From Cellulomonas shaoxiangyii (GTDB lineage: Bacteria > Actinomycetota > Actinomycetes > Actinomycetales > Cellulomonadaceae), in the NCBI RefSeq assembly GCF_004798685.1, contig NZ_CP039291.1, positions 2,542,001 to 2,606,000 of the forward strand: a stretch of 64,000 nt of DNA, read 5' to 3'. Below, piece by piece: positions 42,054-56,997 of this stretch. Within the stretch, counting starts at the first letter, position 1. Each line of letters starts with the position of its first letter. Made by a program: the position numbers and the translations under genes. The notes under the pieces are model-generated. The model was not told the DNA's origin and ran no database searches. It was given only the letters and a program-made list of their open reading frames with translations.

Positions 42054-42542
42054 TCAGGCCGCGGCGAGCGCCGCGTCGATCTGCCCGAACGCCTGCGCCA
42101 TCCCCTCGGCCATGCCGGTGGCGAGCATCTGCTCCATCACGTCCGCGCCGGCGAACTGCGTCGTCACGGTCATCGTCGTGCCGGCCCCGGCGGGCTCCAG
42201 CGTGACGACCATCCGCATGGCGGGGACCGTGGTCGTCGGCTCGCCGTCGTCGTCCGCGAACGCGTCGTCGAGCTCGAGCCGGTGCGGTGCGTCCACCGCG
42301 ACGAACCGCCAGTGGCCACGGGCGACCTCCCCCGCCGGGCCGGTCATGTGGTACTTCGCCACGCCGCCCGGACGCAGGTCGTGGCTGTCGAACGTGGCGG
42401 GCCAGGTCGGCGGTCCCCACCAGCGCTCGAGCCGGCGCGGGTCGGCCCACAGGTCCCAGGCGCGCTCGGGCGGGGCGGCGAGGTCGGCGACGAGGGTGAG
42501 CGTCAGCGCCTCGGGGTCGGTGGTCGTGCGGGTGACGGTCAT
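42054..42542 (-). CDS. SRPBCC/AHSA1-domain protein
   Basis: A 162-residue START-like protein: LVADLAAPPERAWDLWADPRRLERWWGPPTWPATF is the AHSA1 signature, followed by VAKYHMTGPAGEV, MRMVVTLEPAGAGTTMTVTTQF and a C-terminal helix GMAQAFGQIDAAL, which forms the lid over the hydrophobic cavity. The ligand is unknown. The ATG overlaps the ArsR regulator stop by 4 bp. ArsR plus SRPBCC pairs are common in actinobacteria, and expression is controlled here by a palindromic operator at the regulator's start. Confidence 0.92.
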   Translation of the reverse strand: MTVTRTTTDPEALTLTLVADLAAPPERAWDLWADPRRLERWWGPPTWPATFDSHDLRPGGVAKYHMTGPAGEVARGHWRFVAVDAPHRLELDDAFADDDGEPTTTVPAMRMVVTLEPAGAGTTMTVTTQFAGADVMEQMLATGMAEGMAQAFGQIDAALAAA

Positions 42543-42943
42543 GCGGGGACTCCGTCCGGTGCGGCGGGAGGTGCGGGAGCGTCGGGCGGTGTCCCACCGT
42601 CCGGGTCGAGCTCGGCGAGGACGGCCGCCATGCGGTCGGCCCGTCCGCGCCAGAGCTCCTCGAGGGCCGCCAGCAGGCGCGCCGCCCGGCGCAGGGCGTC
42701 CACGTGCCCGTGGACGATCTGCTCGCGCCCGCGCCGCTGCTTCACGACGAGGTGCGCGCGCTCCAGGACGGCCACGTGCTTCTGGACCGCCGCGAAGCTC
42801 ATGGCGTAGTGGGCCGCGAGCGCCGAGACCGACGCCTCCTGCACGAGCACGCGGCGCACGATGTCGCGCCGGGTCGCGTCCGCGAGGGCGTGGAAGAGCA
42901 GGTCGGTCTGCTCGTCCTCGCACGGTAACTCATCTACAACCAT
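42539..42943 (-). CDS. ArsR-family transcriptional regulator
   Basis: A 134-residue winged-helix repressor: LLFHALADATRRDIVRRVLVQEASVSALAAHYAMSFAAVQKHVAVLERAHLVVKQRRGREQIVHGHVDALRRAARLL in segments. No Cys-rich metal site is visible (a single Cys in the N-terminal DELPCED), so it is not an obvious arsenic sensor. It is the first gene of the pair with SRPBCC and its ATG at 42943 lies inside a perfect TACAACCA-TG-TGGTTGTA palindrome, which is the likely self-operator. The transcript may be leaderless or nearly so. Confidence 0.94.
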   Translation of the reverse strand: MVVDELPCEDEQTDLLFHALADATRRDIVRRVLVQEASVSALAAHYAMSFAAVQKHVAVLERAHLVVKQRRGREQIVHGHVDALRRAARLLAALEELWRGRADRMAAVLAELDPDGGTPPDAPAPPAAPDGVPA

Positions 42944-42952
42944 GTGGTTGTA
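42935..42952 (-). promoter_or_regulatory. ArsR operator palindrome overlapping the start codon
   Basis: TACAACCA (42935-42942), TG, TGGTTGTA (42945-42952) is a perfect inverted repeat. On the minus strand it covers the start codon at 42943. A TAACGT (-10 like) lies 8 bases upstream of the ATG. Repressor binding would block initiation directly. Confidence 0.9.
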
Positions 42953-43051
42953 CGTTACGCGCGCGGCGCACGCGGGACAAGGCGACGTCATGCCGGCTGC
43001 GGACCCGGCGCGCGCGTCGGGCCTCGACCAGGGCCCGTGTCGGTGGCAGGG

Positions 43052-43067
43052 TCGAACATGTGTTCGT
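43052..43067 (+). promoter_or_regulatory. LexA (SOS) box overlapping the dinB start
   Basis: TCGAACATGTGTTCGT at 43052-43067 matches the actinobacterial SOS box TCGAAC-N4-GTTCGA with a single mismatch in the last base. It covers the GTG start codons at 43060 and 43066, so LexA would repress dinB by occluding initiation. Confidence 0.85.
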
Positions 43068-44262
43068 GCCCGAGCCGCGCGCCGCGATCCTCCACGCCGA
43101 CCTCGACGCGTTCTACGCGTCGGTCGAGCAGCGTGACGACCCGCGCCTGCGCGGGCGCCCCGTCGCGGTCGGCGGCGGGGTCGTGCTCGCCGCGTCGTAC
43201 GAGGCGAAGCGGCGCGGGGTGCGCACGGCCATGGGCGGGCGGGCCGCGCGCATCGCGTGCCCCGACCTGATCGTGGTGCCGCCCCGGTTCGAGGCCTACG
43301 TCGAGGCCAGCCGCGCGGTCTTCGAGGTGTTCCACGACACGACCCCGGCCGTGCAGGGCGTGTCGATCGACGAGGCGTTCCTCGACGTCGGAGGCCTGCA
43401 CCGCCTCGACGCGACACCGCCCGTGGACGTCGCCGCGCGGCTGCGCGACCGCGTGCGGGACGAGGTCGGCCTGCCGATCACCGTGGGGGTCGCCCGCACG
43501 CCGTTCCTGGCGAAGGTGGCCAGCCGCGTCGCCAAGCCGGACGGCCTGCTGCTCGTGCCGCCCGACGGGGAGGACGCGTTCCTGCACCCCCTGCCGGTCG
43601 AGCTGCTGTGGGGCGTCGGCGACGTCACCGCGGGCCGGCTGCGCGCCTACGGGCTGCACACGGCCGGTGACGTGGCCGCGCTGCCGGAACCGGTCCTCGT
43701 CGGCGTGCTGGGGCCGGCGGCCGGGCGCCACCTGCACGCGGTCGTGCACGGGCGCACGCCCGAGCGGGTGGTCACCGACCGGCGGCGGTCCTCGATCGGC
43801 GCGCAGCGCGCGCTCGGCCACGGTCCGCACTCCCCCACGTTCGTGCGCTCCGCGCTGCTGGGTCTCGTCGACCGGGTCGCGCGGCGCATGCGCGGCGCGC
43901 ACCGGACGGCGCGCACGGTCGTGCTGCGGCTGCGCTTCGACGACTACACGCGGGCGACGCGCTCGCACTCCTTCGCGCACGCCACCGACTCGGGCGAGCA
44001 GCTCGCCGCGGCCGCGACGGCGCTGCTCGACGACGCGGCCGGGCTCGTGCGCGAGCGCGGGCTCACGCTGGTCGGGGTCGCGCTGACGAACCTCGGCTCG
44101 GACGCGGCCGTGCAGGACACGCTGCCCCTCGAGCACGCCGACCGCTCCGCCCTCGACACCGCGGCCGACGCGGTCGCGCAGCGGTTCGGCAGCGGTGCGG
44201 TGGTGCGGGCGAGCCTGCTGCGGTCGGGCGACGGGGTCGCGGTGCCCCTGCTCCCCGACTGA
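43060..44262 (+). CDS. dinB: DNA polymerase IV (Y-family, DinB)
   Basis: A 400-residue translesion polymerase. Palm residues are visible in ILHADLDAFYASVEQRDDP and in SIDEAFLDVGG (catalytic acidic pair), with YEAKRRGVRTAMGGRAARIACPDLIVVPP and KVASRVAKPDGLLLVP typical of DinB. The thumb HhH segment is LLWGVGDVTAGRLRAYGLHTAGDVA, and the little-finger domain follows. No clear C-terminal clamp-binding motif is seen. The start, GTG 43060 or 43066, falls within a LexA box, so SOS regulation is strongly implied. It is monocistronic. Confidence 0.95.
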   Translation: MFVPEPRAAILHADLDAFYASVEQRDDPRLRGRPVAVGGGVVLAASYEAKRRGVRTAMGGRAARIACPDLIVVPPRFEAYVEASRAVFEVFHDTTPAVQGVSIDEAFLDVGGLHRLDATPPVDVAARLRDRVRDEVGLPITVGVARTPFLAKVASRVAKPDGLLLVPPDGEDAFLHPLPVELLWGVGDVTAGRLRAYGLHTAGDVAALPEPVLVGVLGPAAGRHLHAVVHGRTPERVVTDRRRSSIGAQRALGHGPHSPTFVRSALLGLVDRVARRMRGAHRTARTVVLRLRFDDYTRATRSHSFAHATDSGEQLAAAATALLDDAAGLVRERGLTLVGVALTNLGSDAAVQDTLPLEHADRSALDTAADAVAQRFGSGAVVRASLLRSGDGVAVPLLPD

Positions 44263-44302: not shown

Positions 44303-44896
44303 TCAGGTCCCGCCGTCGGTGGTGCCCGCGGGCACGCCGAGCTCGCGGCGCATGAGCCACCGCTCGCGGTGCCCGCTGTGCGCAGCCGTGGGTGCGGCGC
44401 GGTGGAACCCGGCCGCCTCGAACAGCTCGACGGTGCCCACGTAGCCCGAGACGACGTCGAGGCGCGTGCCCCCGGTCTCGGCCGGATACCCCTCGACCAC
44501 CTGCGCGCCGTGCGCCCGCGCGTGCTCCACCGCGCCGGCGAGCAGCACGTGCATGAGTCCCCGCCGCCGGTACGGCGGCCGCACGACGAAGCACACCACG
44601 CTCCACGCGTCGCGCTCGTCGAGGAACGGGATGGTGCGTGAGCGCATGAGCCGGCGGTAGGTGCTGCGCGGCGCGACCGAGCACCACCCCGCGACCTCGT
44701 CGTCGACGTACGCGAGCACACCCGGTCCGGGCTCGGCGGCGCACAGCGCCCGCACGGCCGCGGGCCGCTCGAGGTTCGGCACGCGGGAGTCCCGGTAGGA
44801 CATGCACCAGCACCCGCCCGCGTCGGGCCGGCGCGTGCCGACGACGGCGGCGAGGTCGTCGAACCGGCCGACGGCCGGGCGGACGTCCGGGGTCAT
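44303..44896 (-). CDS. GNAT-family N-acetyltransferase
   Basis: A 197-residue acetyltransferase. The acetyl-CoA loop is CFVVRPPYRRRGLMHVLLAGAVEHARAHGA, matching the R/Q-x-x-G-x-G/A pattern of GNAT motif A in a variant form. DEVAGWCSVAPRSTYRRLM and the aromatic N-terminal GGCWCMSYRDSRVP resemble the group of GNAT proteins fused to or associated with antibiotic and small-molecule acetylation. The substrate is unknown. It lies 47 bp downstream of the histidine-kinase gene of the six-gene operon, with no shared overlap. Confidence 0.85.
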   Translation of the reverse strand: MTPDVRPAVGRFDDLAAVVGTRRPDAGGCWCMSYRDSRVPNLERPAAVRALCAAEPGPGVLAYVDDEVAGWCSVAPRSTYRRLMRSRTIPFLDERDAWSVVCFVVRPPYRRRGLMHVLLAGAVEHARAHGAQVVEGYPAETGGTRLDVVSGYVGTVELFEAAGFHRAAPTAAHSGHRERWLMRRELGVPAGTTDGGT

Positions 44897-44943
44897 GTCG
44901 TCACCCTAGGCGCGCGCACCGACACCGTCCCGGGCGGCACCCG

Positions 44944-46776
44944 TCAGCGGTCGCCGGGCGGCACCGCCGGCAGCGACACGACGAACGTCGTGCCCTCGCC
45001 GACCGTGCTCTGCACGTCCAGCTCCCCGCCGTGGGCGTCGATCACCGCCTTGGTGATCGACAGGCCCAGCCCGACGCCCGGGATCGCGCGACGCGCGGCG
45101 TTCGACGCGCGGAAGAACCGCGCGGTGAGGTCGCCGAGCTCGTCCGCCGGGATGCCGATGCCGGTGTCGGAGACGGCCAGGAGGGCACCGCCGTCCGGCA
45201 GCGGCGCCACCTCGACCCGCACCGAGCCACCCGGGGGCGTGAACTTCACGGCGTTGGACACGAGGTTGTCGACGGCCTGCCCGAGCCGCACGGGGTCGGC
45301 CACGAGCGGGGCGTCCTGCACGGCCGGGACGAGCGTCACGCCGGCCTGCTCGGCGGCCGGTGCGGCGGAGGCGAGCGACGCGCGCGCCACCGCACCGAGG
45401 TCGGTCGGCTGGGGCGTGATGGCGAACGTCCCCGCGTCGACCTGCGCGGACAGCAGGAGGTCGCTGACGAGCCGCAGCTGGCGCCGGGCGTTGCGCTCGA
45501 CCACCTGGAGGTACTCGCGCTGCTCGTCGCTGAGGGGCTCCGTGCCGTCGAGGAGCAGCTCGAGGTAGCCCAGCACCGACGTGAGCGGCGTGCGCAGCTC
45601 GTGGCTGACCAGGCCGAGGAACTGGTCCTTGAGCAGCGCGGCCTCGCGCTCGGCCGTGACGTCGGTCGCCACGACCACGTACCCGCTCACCGACCCGTCG
45701 GGCTCCACCCGGCGCGTCACCGCGAGGCGGACGATGACGGTGGTGCGGTCGCCGCGCACGTACGTCCAGTCGCGCACGTCGGCGCTGCCGGCGCGGGCGG
45801 GCGCCACGAGCGCCTCGACCAGCTCGCGCTGCTCGGCCAGCGCGTCGCTGCCGCCGCGCGGCGGCGAGCCGCGGTGGCGCGGACGCCGCTCGTCGATCTC
45901 GGCCCGCACGTGGAAGTCGGTGAGGTGCATGCGGCCGACGACCTCGCCCTGCGCGTACCCGAGCAGGCGCTCCGCACCGGGGTTGAAGACCTCGACGCGC
46001 CCCTCCCGGTCCGTCGCGATGATCGCCTGCTCGGTGGCCGAGTCGATGACGGAGATCAGCTGGTCACGTGCGGCGCGCCGCGTGCTCGCCACCCGCTGCA
46101 GCGCCACCGCCGACTCGCGCGTGCGCTCCAGCAGCTCGGTCTGCGCGACCTGCAGCCCCTCGAGGCGGGCGCTGTACGCACGCTGCCGCTCGGTCGTCTC
46201 GTGCACGAACACGCTGATGGCGAGCGCGCTCGCGGCGACGAGGAAGCTGCGCAGCACGACGACGTCCTGGTCGACGGTCGGGTCCAGCCACGACGAGGCC
46301 GCCACGGTGGCGGCGGTCGCGAGCGTGGCCACCAGGATGCGGGCCCGGCCGGGGCGCGCGCTGAGGGTGATGACCGGCAGGTAGACGAGGGCGGCGTACG
46401 GCGAGCCGAGCCCGCCCGTGCCCATGCGCAGCGCCGCGACGGCGGCGATCTGCAGCAGCGGCAGCACGTCCTGGGCGCTGGGCCGCAGGCGCCGCCACGG
46501 CACGACGAGCGCGAGCACGAGGGACGCCAAGGTCAGCCCGCCCGCGACGACGACGGGCGCCACGGCGGTGACGTCGATGCCGGGCAGCCCGAGCGTCACG
46601 GCCGCCGCGGCGGACAGCACGGCGAACGGCAGCTGCCGTTCGAGGACGGTGCCGTCCGGCCAGAGCCGTCGGGTGAGCGCGCGCGGGAGGGGCGAGGCCG
46701 ACGGCGCGCGGTCCGCTGCGACCCTGCCGCCCGGCGGGAGCGCGTGACCCGTGGTCAGCGGGGCGCGGTCCGTCAC
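44944..46776 (-). CDS. PAS-domain membrane sensor histidine kinase
   Basis: A 610-residue kinase and last gene of a six-gene operon. The N-terminal region has about six hydrophobic helices (residues about 45-200: LPFAVLSAAAAVTLGLPG, VAPVVVAGGLTLASLVLALVV and others) rather than an extracellular loop, then a PAS domain (STEQAIIATDREGRVEVFNPGAERLLGYAQGEVVG), the H-box GLVSHELRTPLTSVLGYLELLLDG and the ATPase boxes DNLVSNAVKFTPPGG, VSDTGIGIP and GVGLGLSITK. Its GTG start overlaps the small membrane gene by 4 bp. The receiver domain fused to the deacetylase five genes upstream is its likely partner. Confidence 0.93.
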   Translation of the reverse strand: MTDRAPLTTGHALPPGGRVAADRAPSASPLPRALTRRLWPDGTVLERQLPFAVLSAAAAVTLGLPGIDVTAVAPVVVAGGLTLASLVLALVVPWRRLRPSAQDVLPLLQIAAVAALRMGTGGLGSPYAALVYLPVITLSARPGRARILVATLATAATVAASSWLDPTVDQDVVVLRSFLVAASALAISVFVHETTERQRAYSARLEGLQVAQTELLERTRESAVALQRVASTRRAARDQLISVIDSATEQAIIATDREGRVEVFNPGAERLLGYAQGEVVGRMHLTDFHVRAEIDERRPRHRGSPPRGGSDALAEQRELVEALVAPARAGSADVRDWTYVRGDRTTVIVRLAVTRRVEPDGSVSGYVVVATDVTAEREAALLKDQFLGLVSHELRTPLTSVLGYLELLLDGTEPLSDEQREYLQVVERNARRQLRLVSDLLLSAQVDAGTFAITPQPTDLGAVARASLASAAPAAEQAGVTLVPAVQDAPLVADPVRLGQAVDNLVSNAVKFTPPGGSVRVEVAPLPDGGALLAVSDTGIGIPADELGDLTARFFRASNAARRAIPGVGLGLSITKAVIDAHGGELDVQSTVGEGTTFVVSLPAVPPGDR

Positions 46777-46976
46777 CGCGTCACGGCCTGGAGCACGACC
46801 GCGACCGCGGTGACCGCCGCGCCGGACGCCGACGCGACGACGACCCACCGCTCGGAGCGCCGGTTGGCGTCGATCTCGTCCCGGAGCGCCTCGGGGGTCA
46901 GCGTGGCCCACCGTCGGGTGCGCGGGGCGGCCGGCTCCTGCGCCCCGGCGTCCGGCGTGGGCGTCGGCGCGCTCAC
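46773..46976 (-). CDS. Small single-helix membrane protein in the GT/HK operon
   Basis: A 67-residue protein: a Pro/Thr/Ala-rich N-terminus, a charged middle (TPEALRDEIDANRRSERW) and one C-terminal hydrophobic helix (VVVASASGAAVTAVAVVLQAV). Both its GTG start and its stop overlap neighbouring genes by 4 bp, which is strong support that it is translated. It may help anchor or regulate the glycosyltransferase or the kinase. No family is recognised. Confidence 0.8.
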   Translation of the reverse strand: MSAPTPTPDAGAQEPAAPRTRRWATLTPEALRDEIDANRRSERWVVVASASGAAVTAVAVVLQAVTR

Positions 46977-48460
46977 GCCGCCACCTTCCCCGTCTTGACG
47001 GTCTTCTCCCACACCATCGCGGCGCCCCGCCACTCCTGGACGTAGGCGTCGAGCGTGATGGCGCACAGCAGGGGCCCGTAGCCGACGACGTACAGCAGCG
47101 GGCGGGACAGCCACCCCACCGCGCGCCGACCCTCGAGGGCGCGCACGACCCGTGCCATGACCATCGAGACCGCGGGCCAGGAGTACAGCAGCAGGAGCCA
47201 CGCCTCCCGCCCGTCCGGGCTGAGGCGCAGCCCGAACCAGCCGGGCACCACGACCTCCCAGAACTGCGGGAACCCCGCCGCGACGATGAGGACGAGCGCA
47301 CCGAGGCCGGGGAACGTGAGCCCCTCCAGCCACGACCGCCGCGCGGTCTCGAGGTCGACGAGCAGCGCCGTGACCGTGAGGTACACGTACGCGGCGATGC
47401 CGACCCACCACAGGTTGCCGAACAGGCGCCCGGCCAGGGCCGGTTCCACGAGGTGCAGGCCGACCAGCCCGACCGACGACAGGATCAGCGTGAACGGCAG
47501 CACGTACGTCGAGAACCACACGAGCCCGAAGCCGAACGACCCGAGGCGGTGCGTGCGCGACGGACGGAACCACACCTTGCGGAACCGCTTGGTGACCTGC
47601 ACGTTCCCGCGTCCCCAGCGGGCGCGCTGCTTCCACAGCGCCCGGACGGAGTCGGGCTCCTCGGCGAGCACGACCGCGGAGCCGTCGAACACGACGCGCC
47701 GCCCGTCGAGCTGCGTGAGGAACGTCGTCACGGTGTCCTCGGCGAGCGTGGTGGTGTCGATCCGCCCGCCGAGCGCCTCGAGGTTCGTGCGCGTGTGCAG
47801 CTGTGCGCCGCCCGCGAGGCACGCGAGCGCGCCGATGACGTTCTGCGCGCGGCGCGCGCACGCCTGGGCGGTCACGTACTCGTACCCGATGTACCGCGCC
47901 ACGCCGCCGGGGCGCCGGCTGCCCTCCCGGATGTAGGCGGTCACCGCACCGATGGTCGGGTCGGCGAGGTGGCGGGTCATGCGGCGCAGCGCGTCGGGCC
48001 GGAAGATGACGTCGGCGTCCGTGATGAGCAGCGCCTGCATCCAGTCGTCGGCGAGCACCTCCCGGATGCCGTGGTTGAGCGTGTGCGCCTTGCCCTGGCC
48101 GCCCTGCGCGCGGCGCAGGTGGATGACGCGGCCCGGGTAGCGCTCGGCCTCGGCGCGCACCACGTCGGGCGTGTCGTCGGTGCTGGCGTCGTCGATGACG
48201 TACACGCGCAGCCGCTCGGGCGGGTACTGCAGCCGCATCAGCCGCTCGATCGACGCGTGCAGGACCGCGCCCTCGTTCCAGGCGGGGATGAGGACGGCCA
48301 CGTTCGGCAGGTACGGCGCGGCCTCGCCCAGGTGGTTGCGCCACGCGTGCACGGGCAGCAGCGCGTACTGGTAGAGGCCACCGATCGCCGGGAAGACCCC
48401 GGCCATGACGCACGCGACGAGCAGGACGACGAGCGCGTCGTGGAGCAGGTCGCCGGTCAT
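46973..48460 (-). CDS. Processive family-2 glycosyltransferase (membrane)
   Basis: A 495-residue GT2 enzyme. Helix 1 is near the N-terminus (LVVLLVACVMAGVFPAIGGLY). The catalytic domain has AVLIPAWNEGAVLHASI, VIDDASTDDT, the DxD-type ITDADVIFRP, the acceptor Asp in LAEDTVTTFL and the processive QxxRW motif as KQRARWGRGN. Four to five C-terminal helices follow, as in poly-N-acetylglucosamine (PgaC/IcaA) and hyaluronan-like synthases. It should polymerise a sugar at the membrane. The coupled PIG-L deacetylase could modify its product. ATG at 48460 overlaps the PHP gene stop. Confidence 0.94.
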   Translation of the reverse strand: MTGDLLHDALVVLLVACVMAGVFPAIGGLYQYALLPVHAWRNHLGEAAPYLPNVAVLIPAWNEGAVLHASIERLMRLQYPPERLRVYVIDDASTDDTPDVVRAEAERYPGRVIHLRRAQGGQGKAHTLNHGIREVLADDWMQALLITDADVIFRPDALRRMTRHLADPTIGAVTAYIREGSRRPGGVARYIGYEYVTAQACARRAQNVIGALACLAGGAQLHTRTNLEALGGRIDTTTLAEDTVTTFLTQLDGRRVVFDGSAVVLAEEPDSVRALWKQRARWGRGNVQVTKRFRKVWFRPSRTHRLGSFGFGLVWFSTYVLPFTLILSSVGLVGLHLVEPALAGRLFGNLWWVGIAAYVYLTVTALLVDLETARRSWLEGLTFPGLGALVLIVAAGFPQFWEVVVPGWFGLRLSPDGREAWLLLLYSWPAVSMVMARVVRALEGRRAVGWLSRPLLYVVGYGPLLCAITLDAYVQEWRGAAMVWEKTVKTGKVAA

Positions 48461-49215
48461 GCGGCGCCCCCGCCGAGCGGTGCCGGTGCGAGCGTGCGGT
48501 AGACGCCCACGTCGCCGGCGACGTGCGCGTCGGTGGACGCGACGAGCAGGACGCCGGCCCGTTCCCACCGCGCCCGCACGCGCGGGCCGGGGCACGCCCA
48601 CTTCTCGTTCACCTCGGCGGGGGTGCCGGTGGCGACGAGGACGGCCGCGAGCGCGTCGAGCAGGTCGTCGGGCACGTCGTCCTCGGTGAGCCCCACCTTG
48701 GGGAGCACGGAGAAGGGGTGCGCGAGCTGGGCGCGCCCGGTGCGCTCCACGGCGCGCGCGGTCGCCGTGACGAGCATCTCGACGACGTCCCCGGGGCGCA
48801 GCGCGCCGGCGTGGAGCCGCTCGCGGACCGTGCGCGGGCTCCACGGCCCATCCGGACCGGGGAGCTGGTGGTCGGCGAGCAGGACGCGGTCGGGGCCGTC
48901 GGGCGTGCCGAGCGCGGCGAGGACGGAGGCGGGGGCGTCGACGCGTCCCGCGACGTCGAGCACCTTCGCCTCGACGCCGGTGAGCACCTCGAGCCCGTCG
49001 ACCGGCGGCAGCGAGCGGACGGCCGCGAGCATGTCCGGCACGTGGGTCGACGTCACCCGCACGTGGTCGACCATGCGCACCCGCCGCAGCCCGGCGCGCC
49101 GCGCGGCGGCGAGGTTCTCCGCGGGCGTGGAGACCGCGTCGTCGGAGAACGTCGAGTGGACGTGGTGGTCCTCGTCGAGCGCGGGCACGGCGACGGGACC
49201 GGCGGCGGCTCTCAC
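48457..49215 (-). CDS. PHP-domain phosphoesterase
   Basis: A 252-residue protein with all PHP metal motifs: HHVHSTFSDDA at the N-terminus, MVDHV, VLTGVEAKVLD, QLAHPFSVLPKVG and VASTDAHVAGD at the C-terminus. The metal centre is therefore complete and a phosphoesterase activity (histidinol-phosphate-like or nucleic-acid related) is possible. The GTG start overlaps the ATP-grasp gene by 4 bp. In this operon it may remove phosphate from a sugar or an amino-sugar intermediate, or act as a regulator; its substrate cannot be read from the sequence. Confidence 0.9.
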   Translation of the reverse strand: MRAAAGPVAVPALDEDHHVHSTFSDDAVSTPAENLAAARRAGLRRVRMVDHVRVTSTHVPDMLAAVRSLPPVDGLEVLTGVEAKVLDVAGRVDAPASVLAALGTPDGPDRVLLADHQLPGPDGPWSPRTVRERLHAGALRPGDVVEMLVTATARAVERTGRAQLAHPFSVLPKVGLTEDDVPDDLLDALAAVLVATGTPAEVNEKWACPGPRVRARWERAGVLLVASTDAHVAGDVGVYRTLAPAPLGGGAA

Positions 49216-50180
49216 CGCCGCCCCAGGACGTCCTCGACGGGCAGGAACACGTCCTCGAGGTAACGGACGTTCGCGATCGCGCGGTGCGCCACCCGGTCCG
49301 GGACGGGCCGCCCGAGGACGGCGTCGAGCACGAGCGACGGCATGTCGACGCCGGACGCGATCGTGAGCGGCATGGCGCCGGGGAACCGCGGGTTGACCTC
49401 GAGCAGCGCGGGCGCACCGTCCGCGTCGCGCTTGAGCTGCACGTTCGCGACCGAGGTCAGCCCGACGGCGCGGGCGACGGCCGACGCGGTCTCCACGAGC
49501 TCGTCGTCGTGCAGCGTGACGCCGGCGACGGCCACGCCCGAGTCGACCCGCATCCGGGCCCGCGGGACGGCCGCGACGACGTGGCCGTCGGGCGCCGCGA
49601 GCACGTCGACCGAGTACTCGTCGCCCGGCAGGAGCTCCTGCACGAGGAGGTCCTCCTCGGCGTGCACGGCGTCGAGCTCGGTGGCCGAGCGGACCGTGCG
49701 GACCCCGCGCGAGCCCGCGCCGCGGCGGGGCTTGACGATGACGGGGAACTGCCACCCGCCCAGCGCCTGCGGTGTGCCGAGCAGCTCGGTCCGCGGCACG
49801 CGCACCGTCCCCCGGCACGCGGCCGCCAGGGCGAGCTTGTCGAGGCACGTCTCGATCGTCGCGAGCGACGGCGACGCCAGCAGCGTGCCCGCCGCGGCGA
49901 GCTCGTCCCGCACGGCGGCGAGCCGCGGGAGCTCCACGTCGACGGTCGGGAACAGCACGTCGACACCCTCGTCGCGGCACAGGGCCCGCACGACGTCGAC
50001 GAAGTCGTCGGCGCGGCCGGCCGGGACGAGGCGCCGGTTCCCGGCCTGCACGAGGTAGAGCCCGCTGGCCCAGCGGTCCATGTCCGCCGCGACGACGTCG
50101 ACGTCGCCACGGCGCAGCAGGGAGCGGATGACCGCGACGCCCGCCGGTCCGCCGGCTCCCGTGACCAGCACCCGAGTCAT
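49212..50180 (-). CDS. ATP-grasp ligase (CarB-like/PylC-like)
   Basis: A 322-residue ATP-grasp protein. The N-terminal preATP domain reads MTRVLVTGAGGPAGVAVIRSLL, the ATP-binding part shows CLDKLALAAAC, FPVIVKPRRGAGSRGVRTV (Lys in the P-loop-like glycine strand), LVQELLPGDEYSVDVL, and the Mg-binding APALLEVNPRFPGAMPLT. Such carbamoyl-phosphate-synthase-like ligases couple an acid to an amine. It overlaps the RR-deacetylase and PHP genes by 4 bp each. It may attach an amino acid or similar group to an amino sugar exposed by the deacetylase; this is inference. Confidence 0.91.
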   Translation of the reverse strand: MTRVLVTGAGGPAGVAVIRSLLRRGDVDVVAADMDRWASGLYLVQAGNRRLVPAGRADDFVDVVRALCRDEGVDVLFPTVDVELPRLAAVRDELAAAGTLLASPSLATIETCLDKLALAAACRGTVRVPRTELLGTPQALGGWQFPVIVKPRRGAGSRGVRTVRSATELDAVHAEEDLLVQELLPGDEYSVDVLAAPDGHVVAAVPRARMRVDSGVAVAGVTLHDDELVETASAVARAVGLTSVANVQLKRDADGAPALLEVNPRFPGAMPLTIASGVDMPSLVLDAVLGRPVPDRVAHRAIANVRYLEDVFLPVEDVLGRR

Positions 50181-51247
50181 GCCACCACCCCGTCGTCGTG
50201 CTGCTGTGCGCGTGCGGCGGGTGCCGCCGCGCGGCCCGTGCCGCCGACCGCGGTCGCGGCGCGCACCGTCTCCAGCGGCTCGGCGTACGCACCCGCGCCG
50301 AACCGCGACCAGTACCGAGCCGTGGCCCGCACGACGTCGGGGGCCATGTAGTCGCGGTGCGCCTGCGACGCGAACGCGGCGAGCATCTCGAGCTTGGCGT
50401 CGAGGAACCCGTCGACGGGCACGAACCGGTCCGGGCGGTAGTCGATCGTCCCGGACGGGCTCTGGAAGCAGGCCAGCGACGGCACCTGCCGCGTCGCGAC
50501 CGCGACGGCCTCGTGCACGGCCCGGTGGTCCTGGTGCCGGTCGTTGCGGGAGTGCGTGTAGCAGATCGTGGGTGCCACGTCGGCGACGGTCCGCTCGACG
50601 ACCTCGATGAGCCCGTCGGCCTGCGCCATGCGCGTGTCCGGGAAGTCGTGCAGGAACAGCCGCGCGCCGATGACGGCGGAGGCGGCCAGCGCCTCGCGAC
50701 GTCGCGCGTCCGCGTCCCCGCCGACCGCGCCGCCGGACATGGTCAGGACGACCACCGTGTCGCCGGCCGCGCGGTGCGACGCGAGCGTCGCACCGATGCC
50801 GATCTCGACGTCGTCGGGGTGCGCACCGACGGCGAGCACGACGGCGCCGGAGGACACGGTCGCGCGGCGGCGGCCCTCGGCGGCCAGGGCGGTCACCCGC
50901 TCGAGGAGCACGGCCGCGGCGAGGGGCTTGACGAGGAACTCGTCGGCGTCGCGCCGCAGCGCCTCGACCGCGTAGTCGACGCTCGCGAAGGCCGTCATGA
51001 CCGCGACCGGCACGCCCGGCGCGCGGGACCGGAGCTCGACGAGCAGCTCCAGGCCGCTCATGCCCGGCATCTGGATGTCGGTCACGACCGCGTCGAACGT
51101 GCGCTGCGCGACCTCGGCCAACGCGGACACCGGGTCGTGCACGACGGTCACGGACATGCCGCCGCGCCGGCTCAGCACCGTGCGCACGTACTGCGCGGTG
51201 TCGACGTCGTCCTCGACGACGAGCACCTCGTACTGCTCCCCCGCCAC
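50177..51247 (-). CDS. Response-regulator receiver fused to a PIG-L/LmbE deacetylase
   Basis: A 356-residue fusion. Residues about 7-118 form a receiver domain with acidic pair Asp13/Asp14, phosphoacceptor Asp57 (TDIQMPG), Thr85 and Lys107 (LVKPL). From about residue 134 a PIG-L deacetylase follows with the zinc motif GAHPDD (His143, Asp146) and the second metal/catalytic motif HQDHRAVH (His238 to His245). It is the first gene of the six-gene operon, GTG at 51247 with GGGGGGAG 5 bases upstream. Deacetylation of an N-acetyl sugar would be switched by phosphorylation from the operon's own kinase. No DNA-binding domain is present. Confidence 0.93.
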   Translation of the reverse strand: MAGEQYEVLVVEDDVDTAQYVRTVLSRRGGMSVTVVHDPVSALAEVAQRTFDAVVTDIQMPGMSGLELLVELRSRAPGVPVAVMTAFASVDYAVEALRRDADEFLVKPLAAAVLLERVTALAAEGRRRATVSSGAVVLAVGAHPDDVEIGIGATLASHRAAGDTVVVLTMSGGAVGGDADARRREALAASAVIGARLFLHDFPDTRMAQADGLIEVVERTVADVAPTICYTHSRNDRHQDHRAVHEAVAVATRQVPSLACFQSPSGTIDYRPDRFVPVDGFLDAKLEMLAAFASQAHRDYMAPDVVRATARYWSRFGAGAYAEPLETVRAATAVGGTGRAAAPAARAQQHDDGVVA

Positions 51248-51378
51248 CCTGGCTCCCCCCACCGGCTGGCGCAACGCTAACCCGCCCGAGCGGCCGCGGC
51301 ACACCGCGCCCGTCCGGCGCGCACGCCTCTGACCAGGCACTTCGGGACGTTCGGGGACGAGGCGGGCACGCCGCGCAC

Positions 51379-51409
51379 GCCCCGGCGCCGCGGGTGCGGC
51401 GGCCGGGGC
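51379..51409 (-). terminator. Hairpin between the symporter gene and the six-gene operon
   Basis: GCCCCGGCGCCGC (51379-51391), the loop GGGT, and GCGGCGGCCGGGGC (51396-51409) pair with one bulged base. It lies 22 bp after the symporter stop on the minus strand. The remaining 130 bp before the RR-deacetylase start contain a TAGCGT element (-10 like) and the GGGGGGAG ribosome site. Confidence 0.75.
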
Positions 51410-51430
51410 GCGCGGTCGAGGCCGGGCGCG

Positions 51431-52888
51431 TCAGGGGCGCAGGCCCGCTGACTCCTCCCGCGCCGGGACGGTCGCGTCGGTGACGTCGGTCGTGGCCCGC
51501 TCGTCGCGTGCCTCGGCGACCTCGTCGCGGAACAGGTCCTCCGCCGACCCCGACTCGTACCTCGCCACGTCGAGGATCCCCTCCCGCTTGGCGACGATCG
51601 CCGGCACCAGCGCCTGTCCGGCGACGTTCACCGCCGTCCGGCCCATGTCGAGGATCGGGTCGATCGCCAGCAGCAGGCCGACGCCGGCCAGCGGCAGGCC
51701 CAGCGTCGACAGCGTCAGGGTCAGCATCACGACGGCCCCGGTGAGCCCCGCCGTCGCGGCGGAGCCGACCACCGACACGAACGCGATGAGCAGGTAATCC
51801 AGGACGGACAGGTCGACGCCGAACAGCTGCGCGACCGTGATGGCGGAGATCGCGGGGTAGATCGAGGCGCAGCCGTCCATCTTGGTCGTGGCGCCCAGCG
51901 GCACGGCGAACGCCGCGTACGAGCCGGGGACCCCGAGGTTCCGCTCCGTGACGCGCTGCGTCACGGGCAGCGTCCCGATCGACGAGCGCGACACGAACGC
52001 GAGCTGGATCGCCGGCCAGGCGCCGCGGAAGAACGCGCCGACCCGCAGGCCGTTGGCGCGCAGCAGCACCGGGTAGACGACGAGGAGGACGACCACGAGG
52101 CCCGTGTAGACCGCGACGGCGAACGTCGCGAGCGGCCCGAGCAGGTCCCAGCCGTAGGTGGCGACGGCGCGCCCGATGAGGCCCAGCGTCCCGAGCGGCG
52201 CCAGGCGGATGACCCACCACAGCACCTTCTGCACGACCGCGAGCGCCGAGCGGCTGAACGCGAGGAACGGCTCGGCCGCCGTGCCGGTGCGCAGCGCGGC
52301 GATGCCCACGACCAGCGCGATCACGACGATCTGGAGCACGTTGAAGTCGATCGACGTGTCGGCGCTCAGCGCGCCGTCGGCCCCCGCCTCGACGCTCGTC
52401 TCGCCGCCGAGGCCCAGGAAGTTGCCCGGGATCAGGCCGTTGAGGAAGTCGAGCCAGCTGCCGGTGGTGCCGGGCTCGACGGCCTCGTCGGTGCTCAGCG
52501 TCGTGCGGGCACCGGGCCGGAAGACCAGGCCGAGCGTGATGCCGACGGCCACCGAGATCGCCGCGGTGATCGCGAACCACAGCAGGGTCTGGCCGGCGAG
52601 GCGCGCCGCGTTCGTCACCTGCCGCAGGTTCGCGATGGACGCCACGATCGCCAGGAACACGAGCGGCGGGACGATCGCGCGCAGGAGCGTGACGAACGCG
52701 GAGCCGATCTCGCTCAGCGTGGTGGTCAGCCAGTTGGCGTCGCCCTCGGCGTTGACGGGGCCCATGCGCAGGGCGATCCAGCCGAGCAGGACGCCGAGGC
52801 CGAGACCGAGGAGCACCTGGACGGTGAAGGACGGCATCCGCAGGCGACGCCTCGGCTGCGCGGACGTGGTGGTGGGGCTGGAGGACAC
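51431..52888 (-). CDS. DAACS-family dicarboxylate/amino-acid:cation symporter (possibly cystine)
   Basis: A 485-residue transporter of the glutamate/dicarboxylate symporter family with eight to ten hydrophobic segments. The hallmark elements are the serine-rich stretch AFVSRSSIGTLPVTQRV, the unwound segment VPLGATTKMDGCASIYPAI and the cation/substrate motif AIDPILDMGRTAVNVAG. The C-terminus is acidic and cytoplasmic. I chose the GTG at 52888 because GAAAGG lies 9 bases upstream; an ATG at 52933 is also in frame. It is preceded by a 27-codon leader peptide ending in a Cys-containing motif, which suggests control by cysteine supply and fits a TcyP-like cystine uptake role. Confidence 0.9.
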   Translation of the reverse strand: MSSSPTTTSAQPRRRLRMPSFTVQVLLGLGLGVLLGWIALRMGPVNAEGDANWLTTTLSEIGSAFVTLLRAIVPPLVFLAIVASIANLRQVTNAARLAGQTLLWFAITAAISVAVGITLGLVFRPGARTTLSTDEAVEPGTTGSWLDFLNGLIPGNFLGLGGETSVEAGADGALSADTSIDFNVLQIVVIALVVGIAALRTGTAAEPFLAFSRSALAVVQKVLWWVIRLAPLGTLGLIGRAVATYGWDLLGPLATFAVAVYTGLVVVLLVVYPVLLRANGLRVGAFFRGAWPAIQLAFVSRSSIGTLPVTQRVTERNLGVPGSYAAFAVPLGATTKMDGCASIYPAISAITVAQLFGVDLSVLDYLLIAFVSVVGSAATAGLTGAVVMLTLTLSTLGLPLAGVGLLLAIDPILDMGRTAVNVAGQALVPAIVAKREGILDVARYESGSAEDLFRDEVAEARDERATTDVTDATVPAREESAGLRP

Positions 52889-55329: not shown

Positions 55330-56811
55330 TCAGCGGCTGCGGCGCGAGCCGGCGCGGCTGCCCATCGACATGCCGACGGCTCCACCGCGCGACGCGGGCG
55401 CGCCCTCGCGGCGACGGCCGCCGTCAGCGCCCTGCCCGCCACCCGCGGTGCCGGCGCGACGGGCGTCTCCGCCCGGACGGCCACCGGTGCGCGCACCACC
55501 GGAGGTCGCGCCACCGGAGGTCGCGCCACCACCGCGGCGGCCACGACCGCCCGCGGCACCGCCGCCGCCACCGCCCCGGCGACCGGACGACGTCCGGACC
55601 GGCTCGGCGACGACGGGCGCCGGAGTGACGTGGGCGGCCTGCTCGCCGACCAGCGCCGTGAGCGCGGGGTCGCCGGCACGCACGCGGCGGGGCGTCACCT
55701 TGATGCCGGCGAGGCGCGTGAGCGTGCGGACCTCGGACTCCTCCTGCGGGAGGACCAGGGTCGCGACCGCGCCCTCGGACCCGGCGCGGGCCGTGCGGCC
55801 CGAACGGTGCAGGTACGCCTTGTGCTCGGCCGGCGGGTCGACGTGGACGACCAGCTCGACCTCGTCGACGTGGATGCCGCGGGCCGCGATGTCCGTCGCG
55901 ACGAGCACCCGCACGCCGCCGTTGGAGAACGCCTCGAGGTTGCGCTCGCGCGCACCCTGGCTGAGGTTGCCGTGCAGGTCGACCGCGGGCACGCCCGCCG
56001 CCGTCAGCTGCTTGGCGAGCTTCTTGGCCTGGTGCTTCGTCCGCATGAACAGCACGCGACGGCCGGTGCCGGACGCGAGCTGGTGGACGACGTCCTTCTT
56101 GGCGTCGACGCCGTCGACGAGGAACACGTGGTGCGTCATCGCCGAGACGGGCGACTCGGCGCTGTCCACGGCGTGCCGCAGCGGGTTGCGCAGGAACCGC
56201 TGGACGATCAGGTCCACGCCGTTGTCGAGCGTGGCGGAGAAGAGCATCCGCTGCCCGTTCGGGTCGGTCGCGGCCAGGATCCGCTTGACGCCCGGGAGGA
56301 AGCCGAGGTCGGCCATGTGGTCGGCCTCGTCGAGCACGGTGATCTTGATCGCGGCGAGCGAGACGACGCCCTGCTTCATCAGGTCCTCGAGGCGGCCCGG
56401 GCAGGCGACGACGATGTCGACGCCGGCCTTGAGGACCGACTCCTGGGGACGCTGCGAGACGCCGCCGAAGATGGTGGTGACGTGCAGGCCGGCGGCCTTG
56501 GCCAGCGGCTCGAGCGTCGCGGCGATCTGCGACGCGAGCTCACGCGTCGGGGCCAGCACGAGCCCGCTGGGGCGGCCCGGCACGCGGCGCACGCCCTGCA
56601 CGCCGGCGACGAGGCCGGCCAGGCGGGCGACGAGCGGCAGGCTGAACGCGAGCGTCTTGCCGGAGCCGGTGCGGCCGCGGCCGAGGACGTCGCGACCCGC
56701 GAGCGTGTCGGGCAGCGTCGCGGTCTGGATGGGGAAGGCGTCCGTCAGGCCACCTTGGGCGAGGGAACGGACGAGGACCTCGGGCACGCCGAGGGAGGAG
56801 AAAGTAGGCAC
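55330..56811 (-). CDS. DEAD-box ATP-dependent RNA helicase (RhlE-like)
   Basis: A 493-residue helicase. Motifs in order: Q-motif region DAFPIQTATLP, motif I GRTGSGKTLAF, Ia PTRELASQI, Ib PGRLEDLM, II VLDEADHM, III FSATLD, IV VLFMRTKHQAKKLA, V ATDIAARGIHVDEVE and VI HRSGRTARAG. The C-terminal 110 residues are Gly/Arg-rich (RGG-like), with two copies of SGGAT from a 15-bp repeat. Such proteins remodel RNA and ribosome assembly intermediates, often at low temperature. GTG at 56811 is preferred (GAAAGG upstream); an ATG at 56859 would add 16 residues. Confidence 0.95.
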   Translation of the reverse strand: MPTFSSLGVPEVLVRSLAQGGLTDAFPIQTATLPDTLAGRDVLGRGRTGSGKTLAFSLPLVARLAGLVAGVQGVRRVPGRPSGLVLAPTRELASQIAATLEPLAKAAGLHVTTIFGGVSQRPQESVLKAGVDIVVACPGRLEDLMKQGVVSLAAIKITVLDEADHMADLGFLPGVKRILAATDPNGQRMLFSATLDNGVDLIVQRFLRNPLRHAVDSAESPVSAMTHHVFLVDGVDAKKDVVHQLASGTGRRVLFMRTKHQAKKLAKQLTAAGVPAVDLHGNLSQGARERNLEAFSNGGVRVLVATDIAARGIHVDEVELVVHVDPPAEHKAYLHRSGRTARAGSEGAVATLVLPQEESEVRTLTRLAGIKVTPRRVRAGDPALTALVGEQAAHVTPAPVVAEPVRTSSGRRGGGGGGAAGGRGRRGGGATSGGATSGGARTGGRPGGDARRAGTAGGGQGADGGRRREGAPASRGGAVGMSMGSRAGSRRSR

Positions 56812-56997
56812 AGGTTGGTCGCCTTTCGCGGCGTTCGTGGGGGCGTCCGCCAGCACCACGAGCCGGGACGCGGGCCTGCTCCCGAGTCGTTACCGGGGCG
56901 GGGCCGTGACCAGTGTGCCTCATGTTCGACCTGGACGCACCGACGACTCGCTCACACCACGGCCCCGCACCGGGCGGCGAGTGGGCGCGGGCCCGCC

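What the first reader, a model, noticed from the sequence alone, without database searches (positions are those of the whole stretch)
44944..51247. Six-gene 'glycan-editing' operon with its own two-component switch
Six minus-strand genes, each overlapping the next by exactly 4 bp, encode receiver-PIG-L deacetylase, ATP-grasp ligase, PHP phosphoesterase, processive GT2 (QxxRW), a 67-residue membrane protein and a PAS histidine kinase. The order and overlaps are seen directly. Biochemically the set could polymerise an N-acetylated sugar (GT2), deacetylate it (PIG-L), ligate a group to the freed amine (ATP-grasp) and process a phosphate (PHP), with the kinase sensing and the receiver gating the deacetylase. 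I know of no described system with this exact gene set, so it is the best candidate here for an undescribed pathway.
Basis: partly seen in the sequence, partly recalled or inferred. Interest (0 to 1): 0.82.

Follow-up and report, generated by a model that had tools for sequence, protein, structure and literature searches.

The report
New type of polysaccharide-making operon
Six overlapping bacterial genes are part of a gene set, found together in distantly related bacteria, that appears to build and export a surface sugar polymer from building blocks edited inside the cell, possibly under the control of a sensor; the searches made here found no published description.

Summary
In detail: six minus-strand genes, five 4-bp overlaps, the stated domains. 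It is no local accident. Searching genomes with the GT2 alone, 15 of 15 further actinobacterial GT2 loci carry receiver-PIG-L (or PIG-L) / ATP-grasp / PHP / GT2 in a row (three of these contigs had also fed the search profile). Of 17 further proteobacterial GT2 loci, 16 carry the ATP-grasp and 15 PIG-L at my cut-offs; a His-phosphatase stands in place of PHP in 15, and all 17 have a TPR protein. Such a TPR protein from a related locus models as TPR plus 14 strands, with E. coli BcsC as best PDB match. A GT2 relative models as a processive membrane synthase. The 67-aa protein is a conserved neighbour of the GT2, apparently fused to it in several Legionella. Verdict: an apparently undescribed class of synthase-dependent exopolysaccharide system with a cytoplasmic deacetylase-ligase-phosphatase module and, in many Actinobacteria, a nearby kinase. 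Polymer and chemistry are unknown. Deacetylation of the finished polymer, as first proposed, is unlikely. The cassette is sparse: 3 of 396 genomes of the phylum, own included.

The parts
50177..51247 (-). Gene A: receiver domain fused to PIG-L (LmbE-like) deacetylase, 356 aa; AHPDD and HQDH motifs and receiver Asp57, Thr85, Lys107 present
49212..50180 (-). Gene B: ATP-grasp ligase (PF15632 / PRK12767-like, PylC-like N-domain), 322 aa
48457..49215 (-). Gene C: PHP-domain phosphoesterase (nearest solved relatives YcdX and Pol X PHP domains), 252 aa; His/Asp/Glu positions of the putative metal site invariant in 16 of 16 aligned
46973..48460 (-). Gene D: processive-type family 2 glycosyltransferase with membrane helices, 495 aa; DDxS, DxD, ED, QxxRW and C-terminal WxKTxK invariant in 21 of 21 aligned
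   Evidence: fold from a relative
46773..46976 (-). Gene E: 67-aa single-helix membrane protein, conserved small neighbour of the GT2 (apparently fused to it in several Legionella)
44944..46776 (-). Gene F: membrane PAS-HisKA-HATPase sensor kinase, 610 aa

Best explanation
The operon encodes a synthase-dependent polysaccharide system of an apparently undescribed class. GT2 (D) with its small membrane partner (E) polymerises a sugar from cytoplasmic nucleotide-sugar and passes it through the membrane; in Gram-negative relatives a BcsC-like TPR-barrel protein takes it across the outer membrane. Three cytoplasmic enzymes serve it: PIG-L (A) removes the acetyl group from an N-acetylhexosamine building block, ATP-grasp (B) joins a carboxylic or amino acid to the freed amine, and a phosphatase (C here, a His-phosphatase in most of the proteobacterial loci examined) removes a phosphate from a substrate or by-product. 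In Actinobacteria the kinase (F) phosphorylates the receiver of A and so sets how much precursor is edited. Shown by sequence and model: gene linkage, enzyme families, conserved active-site residues, synthase and exporter folds in relatives, D-E linkage. Inferred: substrates, order of steps, cytoplasmic editing before polymerisation, F-to-A phosphotransfer. Unknown: the polymer.
For: A-B-C-D in a row in 15 of 15 actinobacterial loci found with the GT2 profile; L137, L146 and L150 lie on contigs of the same length as L032, L061 and L064, which had fed the profile, leaving 12 of 12 new ones. In 17 proteobacterial GT2 loci: B in 16, A in 15 (a 16th, L183, below cut-off at 167 bits), T (TPR protein) in 17, H (His_Phos_1) in 15. 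Model of a D relative with an E-like tail: pLDDT 92.6, pTM 0.91; best Foldseek PDB matches hyaluronan synthase, PcManGT, BcsA, chitin synthases. Model of a T (L059): 11 helices plus 14 strands, best match E. coli BcsC, PelBC at rank 7. A BcsB-family and a GH81 gene directly before D in one Legionella locus, GH81 in another. E: a model built only from actinobacterial sequences, run on 1808 ORFs of proteobacterial loci, has as its 11 best hits frames that overlap, contain or follow D; E scored in 42 of 52 D loci outside the training list. Two unrelated phosphatase families accompany the set, roughly along the GT2 tree. Other clusters hold PIG-L + ATP-grasp + a distant GT2, one with WecB. Receiver-PIG-L plus kinase without the rest: 5 of 19 loci.
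Against: No product is known. L194 keeps A-B-C-F with D and E missing, and L031 keeps A-B-F with no D in its genome, so A and B may have a role apart from the synthase. L045, L048 and L050 have A without B or D. In the genome of L036 D lies on another contig with none of A-C around it (L152). Four further D loci in genomes reached through A are incomplete, at or near contig ends: L153 (D, B, T), L154 (D, A), L155 and L156 (D alone). GH81 and BcsB beside D in Legionella point to a beta-glucan, which has no acetyl group to remove. No phosphatase of either kind was found in L049, L052 and L174. A lacks the receiver in L149 (same gene as L021); receiver residues are eroded in L061, L063, L107 and L049. 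E did not score in 10 of 52 D loci, and its scores in Legionella tails are weak. Kinase scores are not specific: unrelated-looking neighbouring kinases in L048 score 326-385 bits. The GT2 profile was built from loci found through A, so D homologues far from A could have been missed.
Confidence: 0.6

Rival explanations
1. The polymer is a neutral beta-glucan-like chain made by D-E, and A, B and C build a separate amide-linked substituent or primer that is added to it.
For: GH81 beside D in two Legionella loci and a BcsB-family gene in one of them; the D fold matches BcsA as well as hyaluronan synthase.
Against: These genes were seen in Legionella loci only; no transferase for adding a substituent is seen in the window operon; NCBIfam's best match for D is PgaC/IcaA, though far below its cut-off.
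Confidence: 0.15
2. A, B and C make a small protective or regulatory metabolite, in the manner of mycothiol or bacillithiol (GT, phosphatase, PIG-L, ligase), and D is only a neighbour or a single-sugar transferase.
For: The enzyme order mimics thiol-sugar pathways (recalled); A resembles BshB1 at 73.5 bits; A-B-C-F without D in L194 and A-B-F in L031.
Against: D's family has a processive-synthase fold, and the set travels with an exopolysaccharide-type exporter in Proteobacteria; BshB1 cut-off of 182.5 not met.
Confidence: 0.13
3. A, B and C produce or remove an allosteric ligand of the synthase, playing the part that c-di-GMP has for cellulose, so the module is regulatory rather than part of the polymer chemistry.
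For: Receiver on A and a nearby kinase.
Against: Three enzymes with conserved active sites would be costly for a switch (inference); no ligand-binding domain on D was found by Pfam.
Confidence: 0.08

Closest known systems
PNAG systems PgaABCD / IcaADBC
   Same: GT2 synthase plus small membrane partner, a deacetylase, and in Gram-negatives a TPR beta-barrel exporter: the same division of labour (the Pga/Ica side is recalled).
   Different: D scores 115.7 against a PgaC cut-off of 422.3 and E has no NCBIfam match. The deacetylase is a soluble PIG-L fused to a receiver, not an extracytoplasmic CE4-type enzyme (recalled for PgaB/IcaB). ATP-grasp and phosphatase are extra.
Bacterial cellulose synthase (BcsABCZ)
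   Same: BcsA-like fold of a D relative, BcsC-like T, and in one Legionella locus a BcsB-family gene and a glycoside hydrolase.
   Different: D's CelA model score is 54.7 against 699.1; no PilZ domain found on D; extra editing enzymes.
Cluster of L096: PIG-L, PgaC-like GT2, exosortase-like protein, ATP-grasp and WecB
   Same: The same PIG-L / GT2 / PRK12767-type ATP-grasp triad.
   Different: No receiver, PHP, E or kinase seen there; has an exosortase-family protein and UDP-GlcNAc 2-epimerase; its GT2 scores only 98 bits to D.
Mycothiol / bacillithiol biosynthesis
   Same: GT, phosphatase, PIG-L deacetylase and amine-ligase logic (recalled).
   Different: GT2 synthase instead of a GT4, ATP-grasp instead of the Cys ligases (pathway side recalled); BshB1 cut-off not met.

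Membership tests
Synthase-dependent exopolysaccharide systems | Processive membrane GT2 with catalytic motifs and a membrane-channel fold | tested here: met
   DDxS, DxD, ED, QxxRW invariant in 21 of 21; HAS/BcsA fold in the model of a relative, 43% identical to the window's D
Synthase-dependent exopolysaccharide systems | TPR beta-barrel outer-membrane exporter in Gram-negative members | tested here: met
   T in 17 of 17 loci by sequence; one T, from L059, modelled: TPR plus 14 strands, best match BcsC
Synthase-dependent exopolysaccharide systems | A secreted polysaccharide product | not testable with these tools
   needs biochemistry
PNAG systems (Pga/Ica) | PgaC/IcaA synthase (TIGR03937 cut-off) | tested here: not met
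   115.7 bits against 422.3
PNAG systems (Pga/Ica) | Extracytoplasmic polysaccharide deacetylase PgaB/IcaB in the operon | tested here: not met
   no such domain in the six genes; the deacetylase is PIG-L. Rest of the genome not searched
PNAG systems (Pga/Ica) | PgaD/IcaD small subunit | tested here: not met
   E has no NCBIfam or Pfam match, though it may play the same part
Cellulose synthase (Bcs) | BcsA/CelA model score and PilZ domain | tested here: not met
   CelA 54.7 against 699.1; no PilZ found
Bacillithiol / mycothiol pathways | BshB1-type deacetylase at curated cut-off | tested here: not met
   73.5 against 182.5
Two-component system with an enzymatic output | Receiver with canonical residues fused to an enzyme, kinase gene nearby | tested here: met
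   receiver residues present in the window; kinase in the same operon
Two-component system with an enzymatic output | Phosphotransfer from the kinase to this receiver | not testable with these tools
   needs biochemistry

The most novel reading that the evidence does not exclude
A widespread but undescribed class of exopolysaccharide whose amino-sugar units are deacetylated and then amide-coupled to an amino acid in the cytoplasm before polymerisation, in which a two-component system acts directly on sugar chemistry (receiver fused to the deacetylase) rather than on transcription.
Probability: 0.3. Interest if true: 0.85.

Novelty: new variant of a known kind. Interest (0 to 1): 0.68.

Why it matters
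A conserved gene set spanning Actinobacteria and Proteobacteria that looks like a polymer synthesis and export route, for which ten searches of an open-access library found no description, is a concrete target: it predicts a polymer, a small synthase subunit and a post-translational route from sensor kinase to cell-surface chemistry. That a His-phosphatase stands where other lineages have PHP argues that a phosphatase step belongs to the pathway.

Tried and rejected
Promoter and terminator consensus scan of 44700-51700 found none of either; uninformative, since the sigma-70 consensus is a poor guide here. Literature: ten searches of an open-access library. Searches returned nothing. The hits of the others were judged from the search listing (titles and starts of abstracts; for only 15 of 79 papers were listed). 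Only PMC12419801 was opened, for passages on two terms; they do not describe this set. A paper on Pig-L in Clostridioides difficile (PMC12613277) was seen in the listing only. Most subscription papers are not held.

The homologue search with B gave no functional name beyond ATP-grasp or carbamoyl-phosphate-synthase-like among the 120 listed; that with a Legionella D gave general glycosyltransferase or cellulose/PNAG-synthase-like names. PDB sequence search places D near no single characterised synthase. I considered a chance cluster (rejected) and E as a kinase partner (rejected: E follows D in loci such as L144 and L148 where no F was found).

The VIA comparisons listed no PgaA, PgaC or curdlan synthase chain; that is no evidence of difference. 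My greedy gene caller merged some GC-rich frames, so presence was scored again on stop-to-stop frames. Of the 52 loci, L137, L146, L150 and L202 lie on contigs of the same length as training loci and are probably the same genomes, so 42 of 52 is somewhat generous. No signal-peptide or topology predictor was run; one search is a hydrophobicity window only.
Full report
Observation. The six genes, their coordinates and the five 4-bp junctions are exactly as described, and Pfam confirms every named domain; the 67-aa protein has no family. The window lies in a 3.9-Mb single-contig genome whose closest named protein relatives are Cellulomonas. The flanking genes, a dicarboxylate symporter upstream and a GNAT acetyltransferase downstream, do not overlap the run.

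Conservation. A genome scan with an alignment of receiver-PIG-L proteins kept 80 loci. I mapped the window genes in 36 of them (L031-L064, L078, L107), those whose match spans receiver and PIG-L, plus L061. Left out were 44, which match PIG-L only, except the archaeal L071 (residues 8-312). In the 36, ATP-grasp lies within 1 kb of PIG-L in 33, PHP is present in 23 and GT2 in 26; some contigs end early (counted from its listing).

Because that sample was chosen through PIG-L, I searched whole genomes with a GT2 profile (itself built from 21 such loci). It hit 3 of 396 genomes of the phylum and 14 of 297 of the order, each including the own genome; 1 of 321 and 1 of 240 in two proteobacterial classes, only the centre genome each time; and, centre genomes included, 10 of 112 in the Legionella order, 11 of 76 in an alphaproteobacterial order and 2 of 150 in the family of the Comamonas genome. 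So the family is sparse but wide. In 15 genomes searched at 1e-60, all 10 matches were at 1e-165 or better, which suggests a discrete family. A protein search scored 1570 relatives at 1e-100 or better, a lower bound.

All 15 non-own actinobacterial GT2 loci have A-B-C-D in a row on one strand; three (L137, L146, L150) lie on contigs of the same length as loci that fed the profile, and in L149 A lacks the receiver. Of 17 new proteobacterial GT2 loci, 14 have A, B, D, H and T; L174 lacks H; L183 has A below my cut-off; L178 ends at its contig end after T. Five other D loci, in genomes reached through A, are less complete: L152 has D alone inside a long contig; L153, L154, L155 and L156 lie at or near contig ends. 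PHP occurs in none of the 17, but does occur in one proteobacterium, L078, whose genome's GT2 (L155) falls among the actinobacterial GT2s; L052 and L153 do too. Phosphatase type thus roughly follows the GT2 lineage. The His-phosphatases keep RHG and GHG residues in 6 of 6 aligned; PHP keeps its His/Asp/Glu positions in 16 of 16.

E goes with the synthase. After D, most loci inspected have a 40-92-residue frame with a charged motif and one C-terminal hydrophobic stretch. In Legionella a similar segment is the C-terminus of D. A model built from actinobacterial E sequences alone, run on 1808 frames from proteobacterial loci, has as its 11 best hits frames that overlap, contain or follow D; the best unrelated frame has E = 0.25. 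At E 0.01, 42 of 52 D loci outside the training list score; the Legionella tails score weakly (6 of 10, E 0.008 to 6e-5), and at least four of the 52 probably share a genome with a training locus. The tail helix is modelled at pLDDT 95-97.

The soluble module. A, B and C show no strong hydrophobic stretch: the only windows over 1.5 are A 104-122 (1.54) and B 4-22 (1.52), the latter in a nucleotide-fold-like N-terminus (no signal-peptide predictor was run). In 22 aligned A proteins the AHPDD residues and the last two residues of HQDH are invariant; L045 and L048 have HEDH and L050 NQDH. The ATP-grasp has a PylC-like N-domain, which suggests, but does not show, amide formation with an amino acid. 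In other clusters whose GT2s score only about 100 bits to D, PIG-L, GT2 and ATP-grasp recur; I scanned two, L066 and L096, and L096 also has WecB. This triad is my main ground for a hexosamine substrate.

The sensor. The receiver in the window has all canonical residues. They are eroded elsewhere: Asp57 in L063 and L107, the acidic pair and Lys107 in L061, the acidic pair in L049. A kinase match above 300 bits is near D in 7 of 15 actinobacterial loci; in some, a stand-alone receiver lies between E and F. In 18 of the 19 congeneric genomes with a full-length match (the 19th, G002, was read as L139), 19 receiver-PIG-L loci comprise 11 complete A-F operons, 1 cut by a contig end, 1 A-B-C-F without D and E, 5 with A and a nearby kinase only (267-305 bits), and 1 A alone. 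The A-plus-kinase loci suggest that kinase and A signal to each other independently of the synthase. Kinase scores are not specific, however: three neighbouring kinases in L048 besides the first score 326-367 bits.

Reading. The evidence points to polymer synthesis and export; the editing chemistry is inferred from families. Because A looks soluble, the acetyl group is most simply removed from a precursor. Against this reading stand L031 and L194, where A and B persist without D, and the GH81/BcsB genes, which hint at a glucan.

Noticed in passing
L061, L063, L144, L146, L148 downstream of D; L154:2817-4973 (+): A 600-720-residue protein, without a Pfam family above cut-off in the three copies scanned, shared between actinobacterial loci (L146 is probably the same genome as L061) and one alphaproteobacterial GT2 locus; could be the polymer's hydrolase.
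   Followed up: partly
L096:5599-10883: A different cluster: PIG-L, PgaC-like GT2, exosortase-family protein, ATP-grasp and WecB; similar hits by score in L072, L081, L091, L104, L108.
   Followed up: partly
L204-L208: Receiver-PIG-L with a nearby histidine kinase and without the rest of the cassette, in the same genus.
   Followed up: partly
L041:8083-8904; relatives in L036, L045 and L048: A carbon-nitrogen hydrolase (nitrilase family) near receiver-PIG-L in several Microbacteriaceae-type loci.
   Followed up: no
window 42112-44262 (+): Long frame with a DNA polymerase IV-like stretch (HADLDAFYASVEQ; motif recalled, seen in the ORF list).
   Followed up: no
window 55330-56859 (-): Frame that reads like a DEAD-box RNA helicase (seen in the ORF list; not searched).
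   Followed up: no
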